DNA of 37,223 nucleotides from an uncultured Clostridia bacterium (GTDB lineage Bacteria > Bacillota > Clostridia > RUG12999), in assembly GCA_946555455.1 (NCBI GenBank), contig CAMNSU010000015.1, positions 1 to 37,223 on the forward strand, read 5' to 3'. The notes beneath the pieces were generated by a model, which searched no databases, was not told where the DNA came from, and was given only the letters and a program-made list of their open reading frames with translations. Positions 1,940-7,982 of the stretch are shown here, piece after piece. Each line of letters opens with the position of its first letter. The first letter of the stretch is position 1. A program made the translations under genes and the position numbers.

Positions 1940-1968
1940 TTGACAGACGGTCAAAGAAGTGGTAAGAT
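1940..1968 (+). promoter_or_regulatory. Sigma-A promoter of the lysine operon
   Basis: TTGACA (1940-1945), a 17-bp spacer and TAAGAT (1963-1968) make a near-consensus housekeeping promoter. Predicted transcription start is around 1975, about 28 nt before the lysine riboswitch. Confidence 0.8.
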
Positions 1969-2002
1969 AGAGGTACAAATTGAATAAGATTGCATATAAT
2001 GA

Positions 2003-2173
2003 GATAGAGGTCGCGGTTTTCATCAGTACGGCGCCGGAGGAAAAAGGACTTTCCTGTGAAGGCGCGGGGAAAGGGGAAACTGCCGAAGGAAAAAAGCGTC
2101 CGGTGTGCTTTGCTTCCTGGTTTTGCAGTGAATAATTGCAGGACTGTCATCCCGTAAGTGATGGAGAGCTATC
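2003..2173 (+). promoter_or_regulatory. Lysine riboswitch (L box)
   Basis: The region carries the conserved core of the lysine aptamer in order: GAGGTCGCGG, then TCATCAGTA, a GC-rich arm, GGGGAAACTGCCGAAGG, a further variable arm, GGACTGTCATCCC and finally TGATGGAGAGCTATC. GATAG (2003-2007) pairs with CTATC (2169-2173) to close helix P1. It sits upstream of asd, the usual place for this switch. Binding of lysine should stabilise the aptamer and favour the terminator that follows, shutting down asd-dapA-dapB-ACT. Boundaries are judged by eye. Confidence 0.93.
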
Positions 2174-2201
2174 GTGAAAAAGGATGGAAAAACGTATATT
2201 C

Positions 2202-2229
2202 ACGGTCGGCTTTGCGTCGACCGTTTTCT
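2202..2229 (+). terminator. Riboswitch-controlled intrinsic terminator
   Basis: ACGGTCG (2202-2208) pairs with CGACCGT (2218-2224) over a 9-nt loop and is followed by TTTTCTATATCT. It lies between the lysine aptamer and the asd ribosome-binding site, the expected place for the expression platform. Confidence 0.78.
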
Positions 2230-2287
2230 ATATCTCAAAAGAAGAAACATGCAACCTTAAAACATGATAAAATTTGGAGGAATTAAA

Positions 2288-3292
2288 ATGAAGAAGTACA
2301 ATGTAGCAGTCGTTGGTGCAACAGGCATGGTGGGAAGAACCTTTTTAAAGGTTTTGGAAGAGAAAAACCTGCCGGTTGAAAACTACTATTTGATGGCGTC
2401 CGCACGCAGCGCAGGAAAAAAAGTTGCGTTTATGGGCAAAGAATATACCGTGGAAGAACTGAACGAACACTCTTTTGACAAACCGATTGACATTGCGCTG
2501 TTTTCCGCAGGCGGATCCACAAGCGAAAAATTTGCACCCATTGCCGCAGCGCACGGATGTATTGTCATTGACAATTCCAGCGCATGGAGAATGGATCCCG
2601 ACGTACCGCTGGTGGTGCCGGAAGTAAACAGCTATGACTTGGAATGGGCGAACAAGAAAAACATCATCGCAAACCCCAACTGTTCCACCATTCAGGCGAT
2701 GGTTGCCCTCAAACCGCTGGACGATAAATATACCATCAAACGTGTGGTTTATTCTACATATCAAGCAGTATCCGGCGCAGGTATGGGCGGCTGGAGCGAT
2801 TTGGAAAACGGACTGAAAGGCGAAGCGCCGAAAAAGTTCCCGCACCCGATTGCGAACAATTGTCTGCCGCACATTGACGTGTTTGAGGAAAGCGGATATA
2901 CCAAAGAAGAAATCAAAATGGTGAACGAAACCAGAAAAATTTTGGGAAATCCCGATATGCGTGTCACAGCGACAACGGTTCGCGTGCCGGTGTTCAACAG
3001 CCACAGTGAATCCATCAATCTGGAATTTGAAAAACCGTTTGACTTGGCAGAACTGAAACAGACTTTGCAGGACGCGCCCGGTATTATCATTCAGGACGAT
3101 CCGGCAAACAATGTATATCCCATGGCAGTGACGGCGACGGGACATGACGAAGTATATGTCGGCAGAATCCGCCGTGACGACAGTATAGAAAACGGCGTGA
3201 ACATCTGGGTAGTAGCGGACAACATCAGAAAAGGGGCGGCTTCCAACGCTGTTCAAATCGCTCAGAAATTGATTGAAATGTGGGCAAAATAA
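2288..3292 (+). CDS. asd: Aspartate-semialdehyde dehydrogenase
   Basis: This 334-residue cytoplasmic enzyme reduces aspartyl-4-phosphate to aspartate semialdehyde with NADPH, the branch point to lysine/diaminopimelate, threonine and methionine. The N-terminal nucleotide-binding loop is GATGMVG (10-16). The catalytic cysteine is Cys132 in NPNCSTIQ, and the likely catalytic histidine is His239 in FNSHSESI. NSSAWRMD and SGAGMGG are further family signatures, and the length is normal. The start at 2288 follows GGAGGAATTAAA; an in-frame ATG at 2264 has no ribosome-binding site and was rejected. It is the first gene of the lysine-riboswitch operon, with dapA 22 bp downstream. Confidence 0.96.
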   Translation: MKKYNVAVVGATGMVGRTFLKVLEEKNLPVENYYLMASARSAGKKVAFMGKEYTVEELNEHSFDKPIDIALFSAGGSTSEKFAPIAAAHGCIVIDNSSAWRMDPDVPLVVPEVNSYDLEWANKKNIIANPNCSTIQAMVALKPLDDKYTIKRVVYSTYQAVSGAGMGGWSDLENGLKGEAPKKFPHPIANNCLPHIDVFEESGYTKEEIKMVNETRKILGNPDMRVTATTVRVPVFNSHSESINLEFEKPFDLAELKQTLQDAPGIIIQDDPANNVYPMAVTATGHDEVYVGRIRRDDSIENGVNIWVVADNIRKGAASNAVQIAQKLIEMWAK

Positions 3293-3314: not shown

Positions 3315-4205
3315 ATGAAAAGAACTCTGTTTACAGGTAGCGGCGTTGCCATTGTAACGCCATATACGGAAACCGGCGTGGACTATGACATGCTGGAAAA
3401 GCTGATTGAATTTCAAATTACGGGCGGCACAGACGCTATCATTATTTGCGGCACAACGGGCGAAGCGTCTACTATGCCGGACGACGAACATTTGGAAGTG
3501 ATTCGTTTTGGCGTGGAAAAAGTGGCGGGACGCGTGCCGGTGATTGCCGGAACGGGCAGCAACGACACGGCGCACGGCATTCAGCTTTCCAAACGGGCGC
3601 AGGAACTTGGCGCAGACGGTTTGCTGCTGGTAACGCCATACTATAACAAAGCTTCTCAAAAAGGGCTGTATGAACATTTCAGCAAAACAGCGCAGAGCGT
3701 GGACATTCCGGTGATTTTATATAATGTGCCCAGCCGCACCGGCGTGACCATTGCGATTGAAACCTATCAAAAACTGGCGGAGATTGAAAATATTGTCGCG
3801 GTCAAAGAAGCAAGCGGGAATTTGGCATATGCGTCTAAAATCCGCGCGGCGTGCGGCGATAAACTGGATTTATATTCCGGTAACGACGACGTTATTGTAC
3901 CGATGTTGTCCATTGGCGGCAAAGGGGTCATTTCCGTGCTGGCAAACGTCTTGCCGCAGGAAACGCACGACATTTGCGCGCGTTATTTCGCAGGCGATGT
4001 GCAGGGCAGCATGGAATTGCAGCTCAAATATATGGATTTGGTTGCAGCGTTGTTTATTGAAGTGAATCCGATTCCTGTCAAAGCGGCATTGGGATTCATG
4101 GGATATGACTGCGGAAAATATCGTCTGCCGCTGTGCGAAATGGAAGAAAAAAATGCGGCGGTGCTGAAAGAAGCAATGAAGAACGCGGGTATTGCCCTCG
4201 TATAA
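3315..4205 (+). CDS. dapA: 4-hydroxy-tetrahydrodipicolinate synthase
   Basis: DapA is a 296-residue TIM-barrel lyase that condenses pyruvate with aspartate semialdehyde, the first committed step to diaminopimelate and lysine. The Schiff-base lysine is Lys164 in AVKEASGN. Tyr136 and Arg141 lie in LYNVPSRTG, and the substrate loop GTTGEAST is at 46-53. The length is typical. I chose the ATG at 3315, preceded by GAAGGAG; an upstream in-frame ATG at 3273 lies inside asd and was rejected. The gene sits 22 bp after asd and 20 bp before dapB, so it should follow lysine-riboswitch control. Confidence 0.96.
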   Translation: MKRTLFTGSGVAIVTPYTETGVDYDMLEKLIEFQITGGTDAIIICGTTGEASTMPDDEHLEVIRFGVEKVAGRVPVIAGTGSNDTAHGIQLSKRAQELGADGLLLVTPYYNKASQKGLYEHFSKTAQSVDIPVILYNVPSRTGVTIAIETYQKLAEIENIVAVKEASGNLAYASKIRAACGDKLDLYSGNDDVIVPMLSIGGKGVISVLANVLPQETHDICARYFAGDVQGSMELQLKYMDLVAALFIEVNPIPVKAALGFMGYDCGKYRLPLCEMEEKNAAVLKEAMKNAGIALV

Positions 4206-4984: not shown

Positions 4985-5007
4985 GCAAATAAGAAAGGAA
5001 GGGGACT

Positions 5008-5475
5008 ATGGAACAAGCGGTTCAAAGCATTCAAGTGATAGACGGCGTGTCTATTATCAGCATTTCGGGTTTGCCGGATGATATCGGCGTGATTGCCCAT
5101 ATACTGCGGGAAGTGGCGGCACGGAATATCAATGTAGATGTGATATGCCAAAGCACTTTGGAAAAAAGCAACAAGGTTACCTTTTCTTTTACCATTGCCG
5201 ATAAAGACGTACATGAAGCGGTGAAAACGCTGGCGTCTTATAAAAAACAGATTGAGAATTTTGTGGTGGAAGTGGATAGCGGAAACGCAAAAGTATGCGT
5301 GGAAGGAAAACGAATGGCGCAGCAGCCGGGCGTGGCGGCAGCGGTTTATGAAGCGCTGGCGGAAGCGGGTGTGGAAACGAAACTGACGTCCACTTCGGAA
5401 GTGGATATTTCCATTGTATTAGCGGACAGGTTCGCAGATGCGGCAGTTTCGGCGCTGCAAACGCTGGCAAAATAG
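5008..5475 (+). CDS. Stand-alone tandem-ACT-domain protein, aspartokinase-regulatory-like
   Basis: The 155-residue protein appears to consist of two ACT domains and nothing else. The first (about 8-75) has the pattern ISISGLPDDIGVIAHILREV and INVDVICQS. The second (about 85-155) has VCVEGKRMAQQPGVAAAVYE followed by VETKLTSTSEVDISIVL. These resemble the C-terminal regulatory half of aspartokinase, in which ACT pairs bind lysine or threonine and give feedback inhibition. No amino-acid-kinase domain is present. Given its place as the last gene of the lysine operon, 23 bp after dapB, I infer that it either binds an aspartokinase in trans as a free regulatory subunit or senses lysine for another partner. 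The start follows AAGGAAGGGG. The ACT assignment is firm; the partner is unknown. Confidence 0.85.
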   Translation: MEQAVQSIQVIDGVSIISISGLPDDIGVIAHILREVAARNINVDVICQSTLEKSNKVTFSFTIADKDVHEAVKTLASYKKQIENFVVEVDSGNAKVCVEGKRMAQQPGVAAAVYEALAEAGVETKLTSTSEVDISIVLADRFADAAVSALQTLAK

Positions 5476-5658: not shown

Positions 5659-5708
5659 AAAATATGGAATGTGCGCGCAAAAGGGCGCGTGAAAATCGGG
5701 AGGAAACA

Positions 5709-7982
5709 ATGGCAGACAAAATAAAAAGGCTGTTTTTTGGGAATACACTTTCACTGACAAGAAAATGGTTGTTGTCATATATACTTATTTTGGTGATTCC
5801 ATTGGTCACCAATGTGTTTTCACAAGTCTATTCGTATGTCAAGTTAAAAGAAGAATTGATTCAATCCAACACCAATTTGACAGCGCAAATCAATTCCGAA
5901 CTGGACAGGCTGTTTTCTAACGCGCAGCGCATGGCGATTGATGTTGCCCATACTGCGGCAGTGCAAACATTGCTGCAAGAAGAGAGACAGAACGACGTAA
6001 CGATGCGCGATATATATAAAATGACGCTGGACATTGAACAAACCAATGCATATAGAGAGGTAACGGGCGCATATTTTATTTATCTGCCAGCGCAGGAATA
6101 TGTTATCATGCCTACCAGTGTTGTTACATTAAAAGAATATCATCAAATTAAAGGTATTACGACGGAATATACTGCGTGGAAGAAGCAGATAGAAGAAGGA
6201 AACGGCTGGCAAAGTTATGGGACAGCCAGCGGCGGCGAATTTTGTTTTGTGGGACAGGTACAGGAAAACGGCGCGCGGGGTATTGTCGGTTCCATTATGA
6301 CGCCGACAGAGTTAAGCCGTGTTGTCAATGAATATATAGATAATTCCGACATTTTTATCTATGACCAAAATAGTGATAATTCGATTTCGTTGGGGGCAGT
6401 GCGGCAAAATCGCGACATTAAAGGAGAACAGTTTACAGAAATTTCCGGTGTGGTTCCGTTTGGAAACCGTACTGCTGTTTATCGAAAGATGAGTTATACT
6501 TCATTTTATCTGGTATATGCCATGTCAAATGATGTGTTTTGGGGACAGATGTACAGCGTCATGATTAGTTTTCTCATTAGCGTATTATTTTGTTTAATTG
6601 TTGGATTTGTAGCGAGTTATTATTTTTCCAAAAAGAATATGAAACCTGTCCGGCAAATTGCACAGTTGCTAAACACAGAAAATGATCGGGAGAATCAGGT
6701 ACAGGAGGACTATCAATATATCTATCAAGCCATTGCTGGTACGCTGGAAAGCCGCAGGGATATCAAACAGCAGTTGGAGCGGCAAAATGGCGTACTCAAA
6801 GAGATACAATTGCGCAAATTGTTAAATGGACAGGTGGAAGCATATCAAAGCGACCAGATTTCATTTCAGGAACAACTGCAATTTGTGTCAGAGCATTTTT
6901 TGGTATGTATTTTGTATATAGAAGATTTTGAAGAAGAAATGGATAGTCCGGCAGGACAGGAATCTTTTCAAGAAATTTATGATATCATGGTGGGAATTAT
7001 TTCCGGTGCGCTGGAAAAAGCGTTTGCACCGCAGGGTACATGCTATGCTGTGCAGGAAAACGGCGTTATGACGGTGCTACTGAATTTTTCGCAGAGACAG
7101 ACGCAGCCGGAAACGCAAATGCGCCGGTTGCTGCTGGAATTTTGCGAAGAAATTTATACCAAATATCATATCACGCTCAGCATTTATGCAGGCGATATGC
7201 AGCAGTCTCTGGGCGGCATTGCGACCTCCTATCAGCACGCACTGACGACAATGGAAAAAGGCGTGCTGATTAGCGAAAATGAGGTGACGTGGTATGACGA
7301 CATTCGCGATGAAGAAGTGGCGCAGTACTATTATCCGCTGGATAAAGAGCATTTTATGATTTCAGCGCTGAAAGAAGGAGATTTTGCAGGCGCGAGTACC
7401 ATTTTTGAACAAATTTGGGGGGCGAATTTTGCCGGTGGAACAGACAATCCGTATGGGAAATGGATTGTGAGCAATCTTGCGAATGTATTAATGAAAACGG
7501 CACTGGATATTGAAGTGAAAAATGAAGTGCAGTTTGCGGCAGATTTACATTTGGAACGACTCACAACCAGCGGACAACACCCCAACATTTTACATGATGA
7601 TTTAAGCAACGCGATTGATAAAATTTGTAAAATGGCAAAAGACTTTGACAAAACAGAAGAGGATACTTCTTTATCAGAGAAAATTTCAGAATATGTTATG
7701 GCGCATTATCAAGACCAAAATTTGTCTATTAATATGTTGGGAGAAAAATTTGAATTGACGCCGCACTATCTGTCGAAATTGTTTAAAGAACAAACAGGCA
7801 AAGCACTGCTTGATTTTATCCATCTGGTGCGCTTGGAACATGCCAAAGCAATACTGACGGAGCGGAAGGAGACGGTGGAGGAAATAGCGATTCAGGTTGG
7901 ATATACCAACCGTGTGACCTTTACACGCGCATTCAAAAAATATTTTGGAATGACACCTGGAAAATATTTGGAGATGATTTGA
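5709..7982 (+). CDS. Membrane-bound AraC-family sensor/regulator
   Basis: The protein has 757 residues. A transmembrane helix at about 20-42 (LLSYILILVIPLVTNVFS) precedes an extracytoplasmic sensor region of about 240 residues. A second helix follows at about 281-306 (SVMISFLISVLFCLIVGFVA). A cytoplasmic linker ends in an AraC-type double helix-turn-helix from about 655 to the end, with LSINMLGEKFELTPHYLSKL, EEIAIQVGYTNRVTFTRAF and FGMTPGKYLEM. Clostridial proteins of this build are one-component systems that often control sugar uptake or glycan-degrading genes next to them. Here neither neighbour is a transporter or hydrolase, so its target is unknown. The start at 5709 follows GGGAGG. Its own promoter and terminator make it monocistronic. 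Confidence 0.88.
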   Translation: MADKIKRLFFGNTLSLTRKWLLSYILILVIPLVTNVFSQVYSYVKLKEELIQSNTNLTAQINSELDRLFSNAQRMAIDVAHTAAVQTLLQEERQNDVTMRDIYKMTLDIEQTNAYREVTGAYFIYLPAQEYVIMPTSVVTLKEYHQIKGITTEYTAWKKQIEEGNGWQSYGTASGGEFCFVGQVQENGARGIVGSIMTPTELSRVVNEYIDNSDIFIYDQNSDNSISLGAVRQNRDIKGEQFTEISGVVPFGNRTAVYRKMSYTSFYLVYAMSNDVFWGQMYSVMISFLISVLFCLIVGFVASYYFSKKNMKPVRQIAQLLNTENDRENQVQEDYQYIYQAIAGTLESRRDIKQQLERQNGVLKEIQLRKLLNGQVEAYQSDQISFQEQLQFVSEHFLVCILYIEDFEEEMDSPAGQESFQEIYDIMVGIISGALEKAFAPQGTCYAVQENGVMTVLLNFSQRQTQPETQMRRLLLEFCEEIYTKYHITLSIYAGDMQQSLGGIATSYQHALTTMEKGVLISENEVTWYDDIRDEEVAQYYYPLDKEHFMISALKEGDFAGASTIFEQIWGANFAGGTDNPYGKWIVSNLANVLMKTALDIEVKNEVQFAADLHLERLTTSGQHPNILHDDLSNAIDKICKMAKDFDKTEEDTSLSEKISEYVMAHYQDQNLSINMLGEKFELTPHYLSKLFKEQTGKALLDFIHLVRLEHAKAILTERKETVEEIAIQVGYTNRVTFTRAFKKYFGMTPGKYLEMI

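What the first reader, a model, noticed from the sequence alone, without database searches (positions are those of the whole stretch)
5008..5475. Stand-alone tandem-ACT protein at the end of the lysine operon
The gene encodes only the ACT-type regulatory half seen in aspartokinase, without the kinase domain. A free lysine-sensing subunit made under lysine-riboswitch control would give two layers of feedback: RNA-level on synthesis and protein-level on an aspartokinase elsewhere.
Basis: inference. Interest (0 to 1): 0.55.

Follow-up and report, generated by a model that had tools for sequence, protein, structure and literature searches.

The report
Free aspartokinase-type sensor beside dapB
A small amino-acid-sensing protein, probably left over from an aspartokinase that lost its enzyme half, is made beside the lysine-pathway enzyme DapB in many Clostridia and is fused to DapB in others, so it may well regulate DapB rather than an aspartokinase.

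Summary
5008-5475 encodes a 155-aa tandem-ACT protein, last gene of a lysine-riboswitch operon asd-dapA-dapB-ACT2, followed by a strong hairpin. Its model matches LysC beta (Z about 20) and it is under purifying selection.

The proposed partner, an aspartokinase, is doubtful. The one LysC found in the genome keeps both ACT domains and has an internal Shine-Dalgarno plus start at the beta boundary (22 of 22 housekeeping LysC examined; 3 of 329 control windows), so it probably makes its own beta subunit.

Relatives point to DapB. Of 39 solo genes examined, 38 follow dapB, 36 within 200 nt. In 17 distinct loci the same kind of ACT pair is fused to the C-terminus of DapB. Free and fused pairs form two supported groups apart from housekeeping LysC. 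A third arrangement keeps a complete LysC behind dapB. Likely history: an operonic LysC lost its kinase and its beta reading frame survived, free or joined to DapB. Residues of the usual Thr/Lys pocket are altered.

Best explanation (0.5): a free allosteric subunit of DapB sensing a pathway end product. Neither interaction nor ligand is shown. I recognised no paper on DapB-ACT in my searches. New variant of a known kind.

The parts
1940..1968 (+). promoter-like site TTGACA-17-TAAGAT
   Evidence: 10 of 12 consensus matches; consensus match only
1997..2179 (+). lysine riboswitch aptamer (RF00168)
   Evidence: 108.9 bits, E 2.3e-28
2202..2224 (+). terminator-like hairpin, probable expression platform of the riboswitch
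2264..3292 (+). asd, aspartate-semialdehyde dehydrogenase (ATG 2288 has the better Shine-Dalgarno)
   Evidence: PRK14874 473 bits over cut-off 223
3315..4205 (+). dapA; His at the position of E. coli His56, predicted lysine-sensitive
   Evidence: PF00701 6.8e-93; rule from PMC5109050
4226..4984 (+). dapB, 4-hydroxy-tetrahydrodipicolinate reductase, proposed target
   Evidence: TIGR00036 228.4 bits over cut-off 122
4995..5004 (+). Shine-Dalgarno-like AAGGAAGGGG of the ACT gene
5008..5475 (+). stand-alone tandem-ACT protein, LysC-beta type
5053..5238 (+). ACT domain 1 (residues 16-77)
   Evidence: PF01842
5293..5460 (+). ACT domain 2 (residues 96-151)
   Evidence: PF22468
5515..5562 (+). intrinsic terminator-like hairpin ending the operon
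   Evidence: -25.3 kcal/mol, z -5.4; not listed, whose loop limit is 8

Best explanation
The protein is a free regulatory subunit for DapB. It descends from the ACT pair of an aspartokinase that lay in the same operon. Aspartokinases of this group carry an internal ribosome-binding site and start, so their ACT pair is already a separate translation unit (the beta subunit). Loss of the kinase part would leave the beta reading frame behind dapB, where in one lineage it stayed free (as here) and in another became the C-terminal domain of DapB. The most likely mechanism is that the free pair binds DapB, senses an amino-acid end product (lysine or a DAP-pathway relative) and lowers DapB activity, beside the riboswitch and a lysine-sensitive DapA. 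Shown: sequence family and predicted fold, operon, gene order, fusions, phylogeny, purifying selection. Inferred: binding to DapB, the ligand, the direction of the effect, the kinase-loss history.
For: Of 39 solo ACT-pair loci examined, window included, 38 lie downstream of dapB on its strand, 36 within 200 nt, two at 699 and 1265 nt. Thirteen families of the class hold them (family labels). DapB::ACT-ACT fusions: 8 by Pfam, 17 distinct loci, from seven families of the class plus four named MAGs (two of them Spirochaetes). In six genomes of another class dapB and ACT2 lie in one frame with a TGA between. The ACT tree puts 17 fused pairs in one clade (95/94) and 22 solo pairs in one (99/99), apart from housekeeping LysC (100/100); the 88-row tree joins solo and fused (96/73). 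LysC seems to supply its own beta: internal SD plus start at the boundary in 22 of 22 housekeeping LysC against 3 of 329 control windows, and in 18 of 19 operonic LysC against 0 of 285. DapA at E. coli position 56 is K/R in 14 of 17 fusion loci with a DapA found, which marks lysine-insensitive DapA (rule read in PMC5109050), so feedback there should sit elsewhere.
Against: Fused pairs are one clade: the fusion is one old event, not many. Neighbouring genes can fuse without interacting. Solo genes evolve fast (long branches) and the module is missing behind dapB in 53 of the 80 DapB loci, so it is not essential to DapB. In the window's own lineage DapA is predicted lysine-sensitive (62 of 62 solo loci have His), so a second brake on DapB is not obviously needed. 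The closest full-length kin is an aspartokinase. No complex could be modelled (single chains only).
Confidence: 0.5

Rival explanations
1. It is an extra beta-type subunit of aspartokinase LysC: it pairs with the ACT domains of LysC and adds a lysine-operon-controlled level of feedback.
For: Predicted fold and sequence are those of LysC beta; the sister arrangement is a complete LysC in the same operon position.
Against: LysC has its own ACT pair and a predicted internal beta start in all 22 housekeeping cases tested; the solo gene follows dapB, not lysC; the pair is fused to DapB in 17 distinct loci; effector-pocket residues differ from LysC (N374: 22 of 22 LysC, 0 of 39 solo).
Confidence: 0.2
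2. It regulates DapA, or a DapA-DapB pair, rather than DapB alone.
For: dapA-dapB-ACT2 is kept together in the solo loci; DapA is the usual feedback point (passages of PMC5109050 and PMC3390394).
Against: DapA has its own lysine-sensitivity marker in 62 of 62 solo loci; fusions are to DapB; in L166 no dapA was found in the 6.5 kb fetched.
Confidence: 0.1
3. It is a remnant that only binds an amino acid, with no enzyme partner, and is on its way out.
For: Very long branches and several losses; one barely recognisable copy in L201.
Against: dN/dS 0.06-0.10 in the window's genus, a Shine-Dalgarno, and all three genomes of the genus examined keep it.
Confidence: 0.12

Closest known systems
LysC beta subunit of alpha2beta2 aspartokinase (Corynebacterium glutamicum, 2dtj/3aaw)
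   Same: Two ACT domains, same predicted fold (2dtj Z 20.1, 2.0 A), similar length, start within about two residues of the beta start (alignment)
   Different: Own gene, not an internal start in lysC; sits behind dapB; residues at N374, I375 and A279 changed in the window protein
Aspartokinase with four ACT domains (Synechocystis, 3l76; the count of four is recalled, two matched stretches)
   Same: Best PDB sequence match (6.7e-30)
   Different: ACT pairs there are part of the kinase chain
Separately encoded ACT regulatory subunits of other enzymes, e.g. acetohydroxyacid synthase small subunit
   Same: Works-like model: a free ACT protein regulating an enzyme (role recalled; AHAS small subunits appear among the lower matches)
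   Different: Different ACT family and target
DapB (4-hydroxy-tetrahydrodipicolinate reductase)
   Same: Neighbour gene; fused to this kind of ACT pair in 17 distinct loci
   Different: The DapB models TIGR00036 and PF01113/PF05173 cover no ACT domain

Membership tests
Aspartokinase (LysC) | amino acid kinase domain (PF00696) | tested here: not met
   No PF00696 match in the 155-aa protein
Aspartokinase regulatory (beta-type) ACT pair | two ACT domains of the AK type with AK-beta fold | tested here: met
   PF22468, PF13840, PF01842; Z 19.5-20.5 to the twelve top AK entries
LysC beta subunit | made from an internal start inside lysC | tested here: not met
   Own gene with own SD, dapB upstream; the genome's lysC has its own internal start
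LysC beta subunit | binds LysC alpha and confers feedback | not testable with these tools
LysC beta subunit | Thr/Lys pocket residues (C. glutamicum Q298, N374, I375, G277, A279) | tested here: inconclusive
   Window keeps Q298 and G277, has E, T and I at 374, 375 and 279; residue list partly from PMC10464499 passages, partly recalled
DapB regulatory subunit (proposed) | genetic linkage to dapB | tested here: met
   38 of 39 solo loci
DapB regulatory subunit (proposed) | natural fusion to DapB in relatives | tested here: met
   17 distinct fusion loci
DapB regulatory subunit (proposed) | binds DapB and changes its activity with ligand | not testable with these tools
   needs experiment
Lysine riboswitch regulon | RF00168 upstream in the same operon | tested here: met
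   window 1997-2179; 26 of 38 dapB-linked solo loci

The most novel reading that the evidence does not exclude
In many Clostridia feedback control reaches DapB, a step for which I recall no known allosteric control by lysine, through a sensor taken from aspartokinase: the beta subunit, already a separate translation unit inside lysC, outlived its kinase and was re-targeted to DapB, free in one lineage and fused in another, with a changed ligand pocket.
Probability: 0.42. Interest if true: 0.75.

Novelty: new variant of a known kind. Interest (0 to 1): 0.6.

Why it matters
If true, lysine synthesis in many Clostridia has a control point at DapB, which affects models of their amino-acid supply and the design of lysine producers. 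It would also show how a regulatory domain moves between enzymes: an internal translation start makes the domain a detachable part. The fused form in the named isolate Caldicoprobacter algeriensis TH7C1 makes the idea testable with one purified protein.

Tried and rejected
Rejected: an aspartokinase without ACT domains (C72 carries the ACT pair; a lysC start lies at the end of C29). Rejected: G198 (434-aa DapB frame) as a fusion; no ACT hit, overlong 5' frame. Rejected: L210 as a fusion, although labels it so (251 aa, 16 bits). Rejected: dapB and the solo gene of the window as one gene broken by an error; they are in different frames and separate in all three genomes of the genus. Rejected: many independent fusions; the ACT tree gives one clade, the DapB tree three changes with weak support. 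Solo L048 (G050) is not by dapB and groups with LysC; it is kept in the 39 and is the one miss.

Limits: the match lists were cut, so 37 of 195 genomes (solo) and 13 of 190 (fused) are lower bounds. Loci were chosen from the best matches, not at random. In the counts four solo records (L164/L046, L184/L043, L192/L107, L229/L052, judged by equal contig lengths) and one fusion record (L160/L122, likewise) occur twice: 62 solo loci are 58 distinct, 18 fusion loci 17. Rfam was not run on L134, L135, L136, L138, nor on the named loci other than L159, L160, L166, L170, L191. Before the tree five hits were dropped as too short (four LysC pieces, one partial frame); before that five loci of unknown state were dropped and near-duplicates removed (151 rows to 124). 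The DapA position-56 contrast is confounded with ancestry: loci without the module also mostly have His (35 of 47 counted, one unread). Paper searches showed no paper that I recognised from its listing as dealing with a DapB-ACT fusion or this solo gene; I read passages only of PMC10464499, PMC11477304, PMC5584792, PMC3390394 and PMC5109050. The library lacks most subscription papers.

Full report
WHAT IS THERE. The ORF 5008-5475 (+) encodes 155 residues. It starts just after AAGGAAGGGG and 23 bases after the dapB stop. Pfam finds ACT domains and no kinase; NCBIfam aspartate kinase models match only with their C-terminal part. The AlphaFold2 model (24-row alignment, pLDDT 95.3, pTM 0.86) matches aspartokinase regulatory subunits best (Foldseek; Z 20.5 to 19.5 for the top twelve entries). 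The operon has a promoter-like site, a lysine riboswitch, asd, dapA, dapB and this gene, then a hairpin with a U run. Among three species of the genus dN/dS is 0.058-0.097 for this gene, 0.023-0.134 for DapB and 0.016-0.043 for Asd.

THE GENOME'S ASPARTOKINASE. A search with PF00696 gave five matches. By their sequences and neighbours I read them as ArgB, ProB, PyrH cut by a contig end, and one LysC in two pieces: a start after an ACT gene and hom at the end of C29 and the rest with both ACT domains at the end of C72. The ACT_9 search finds no other pair over the cut-off than LysC and the window gene. The genome is listed as 97.6% complete, so a second aspartokinase could be missed. In G002 of the same genus LysC is complete at 402 aa. 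LysC contains AAGGAGG eight bases before GTG246 at the alpha/beta boundary. Such an internal SD plus start occurs at the boundary in 22 of 22 housekeeping LysC against 3 of 329 control windows of 20 codons, and in 18 of 19 operonic LysC against 0 of 285. Part of this may reflect conserved Lys-Glu residues. The predicted beta start suggests that LysC does not need a foreign beta subunit.

WHERE RELATIVES SIT. In 60 related genomes the protein is 94-97% identical in the two other genomes of its genus and otherwise at most 37% identical. A profile search of 195 genomes of the class matched 176, mostly LysC; in the cut list 37 genomes have a match in an open frame of at most 210 aa. I fetched these plus G001 and G050, 39 loci with the window. 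In 38 of 39 the gene follows dapB on the same strand, 36 within 200 nt. The lysine riboswitch lies in 26 of these 38 loci; the twelve without are nine of family f17 and three of f44. The order upstream varies, but dapA-dapB-ACT2 stays together.

FUSIONS. Eight loci chosen for high profile scores had no separate dapB and a frame of 406-415 aa; all eight hold DapB_N, DapB_C and ACT domains. A DapB census of 190 genomes of the class showed further long frames. Of six of these fetched, five are fusions and one, G198, is not. The named scan kept 80 DapB loci: 18 solo, 5 true fusions (a sixth label, L210, is false), 53 with neither, 3 at contig ends. In total there are 18 fusion loci, 17 distinct. 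They come from families f4, f20, f36, f37, f41, f49 and f50 of the class and four named MAGs (L159, L166, L170, L191), L166 and L170 being Spirochaetes. Caldicoprobacter algeriensis TH7C1 (L160, apparently the same record as L122) is a named isolate. The riboswitch is present in 12 of the 17. In six genomes of family f142, another class, dapB and ACT2 are separate but in one frame with a TGA between. The fusion model (42 rows) has pLDDT 94.2 and pTM 0.76 and matches DapB structures first, then aspartokinases.

A THIRD ARRANGEMENT. Nineteen loci, selected by profile score, carry a complete aspartokinase of about 401 aa with the same kind of ACT pair; in 18 it follows dapB and in one (L131) no dapB was found in the fetched piece. 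Fourteen of 15 scanned have the riboswitch.

HISTORY. In a tree of 88 ACT pairs, 22 housekeeping LysC with the odd solo L048 stand apart (100/100) from 65 operon-type pairs; within these, 8 fused pairs (99/96) and 38 solo pairs (100/98) are each one group, joined at 96/73, beside 19 operonic LysC (85/24, weak). A second tree of 63 rows gives 17 fused (95/94), 22 solo (99/99) and six housekeeping LysC (100/100) each as one group; the operonic LysC group is not firm (53/18). The tool warned of long branches, the window's row among them. In a DapB tree of 124 rows, solo and fused loci are separated by one change and all 44 solo rows lie in one set of 84 (97) together with 40 rows without the module, which reads as repeated loss. 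Solo proteins begin within about two residues of the LysC beta start, and the fusion junction lies at about the same place (alignments). The simplest reading is that the beta frame of an operonic LysC survived the loss of its kinase. The direction is inferred; the opposite, gain of a kinase, is not excluded, as the root is weakly placed.

LIGAND. Against C. glutamicum numbering, N374 and I375 are kept in 22 of 22 housekeeping LysC; N374 is kept in 0 of 39 solo, 1 of 8 fused and 2 of 19 operonic LysC. A279 is 22 of 22, 1 of 39, 1 of 8 and 0 of 19. G277 is 22 of 22, 8 of 39 (the window among them), 0 of 8 and 1 of 19. Position 384 is D or E in 37 of 39 solo and K in 22 of 22 LysC. Ser at 297 is found in 30 of 39 solo, 8 of 8 fused, 19 of 19 operonic and 0 of 22 housekeeping LysC. 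On the other side, Q298 is kept in 29 of 39 solo. The pocket seems to have changed in common ancestry; the ligand is open. Lysine is likely from the riboswitch, meso-DAP is possible.

DapA MARKER. PMC5109050 (passages) states that His or Glu at position 56 marks lysine-sensitive DapA, and Lys or Arg insensitive. DapA has His in 62 of 62 solo loci; in 17 fusion loci with a DapA found 14 K/R, 2 Q, 1 E; His in 1 of 18 operonic-LysC loci; and in loci with neither 35 His, 7 Gln, 3 Arg, 1 Lys, 1 unread (numbering checked). So where the ACT pair is fused to DapB the usual feedback site on DapA is mostly gone. This fits control at DapB, but ancestry alone could give it.

VERDICT. The likeliest target is DapB, not aspartokinase. 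The claim rests on linkage, fusion and evolutionary evidence; no binding, ligand or kinetic result exists here. In the nine paper searches named under Tried and rejected I recognised no report of DapB-ACT fusions or of this solo gene.

Noticed in passing
L003 end, L004 start (contigs C72 and C108 of the window's genome): Translations at these contig ends read LHFKRHSFPTRRSSDL and GRASCRERVS, which I recall as typical of sequencing-adapter remnants; they break lysC and pyrH.
   Followed up: partly
L053:833-1276 and L005:1-243: A second stand-alone ACT protein (147 aa in G002) directly upstream of hom and lysC.
   Followed up: no
G033, G044, G043, G061, G065, G125, G175, G204: Several genomes have a second DapB in an open frame of about 268-305 aa outside the lysine operon, in some scoring higher than the operonic one.
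   Followed up: no
L245-L250: dapB and the ACT gene are in the same frame with a single TGA between in six of six genomes of one family; readthrough or easy fusion is possible.
   Followed up: partly
L166, L170: DapB-ACT fusions in two Spirochaete MAGs whose ACT part falls inside the fusion clade, suggesting transfer or mis-binning.
   Followed up: partly
L048 (G050): A 156-aa solo ACT pair not near dapB, grouping with housekeeping LysC; perhaps a separate origin of a free ACT pair.
   Followed up: partly
window 5664-7982 (+): Large AraC-type regulator downstream of the terminator; apparently unrelated to the operon.
   Followed up: no
L201:5869-6294: An ORF behind dapB that looks like a very degenerate solo ACT protein (profile E 0.044).
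   Followed up: partly
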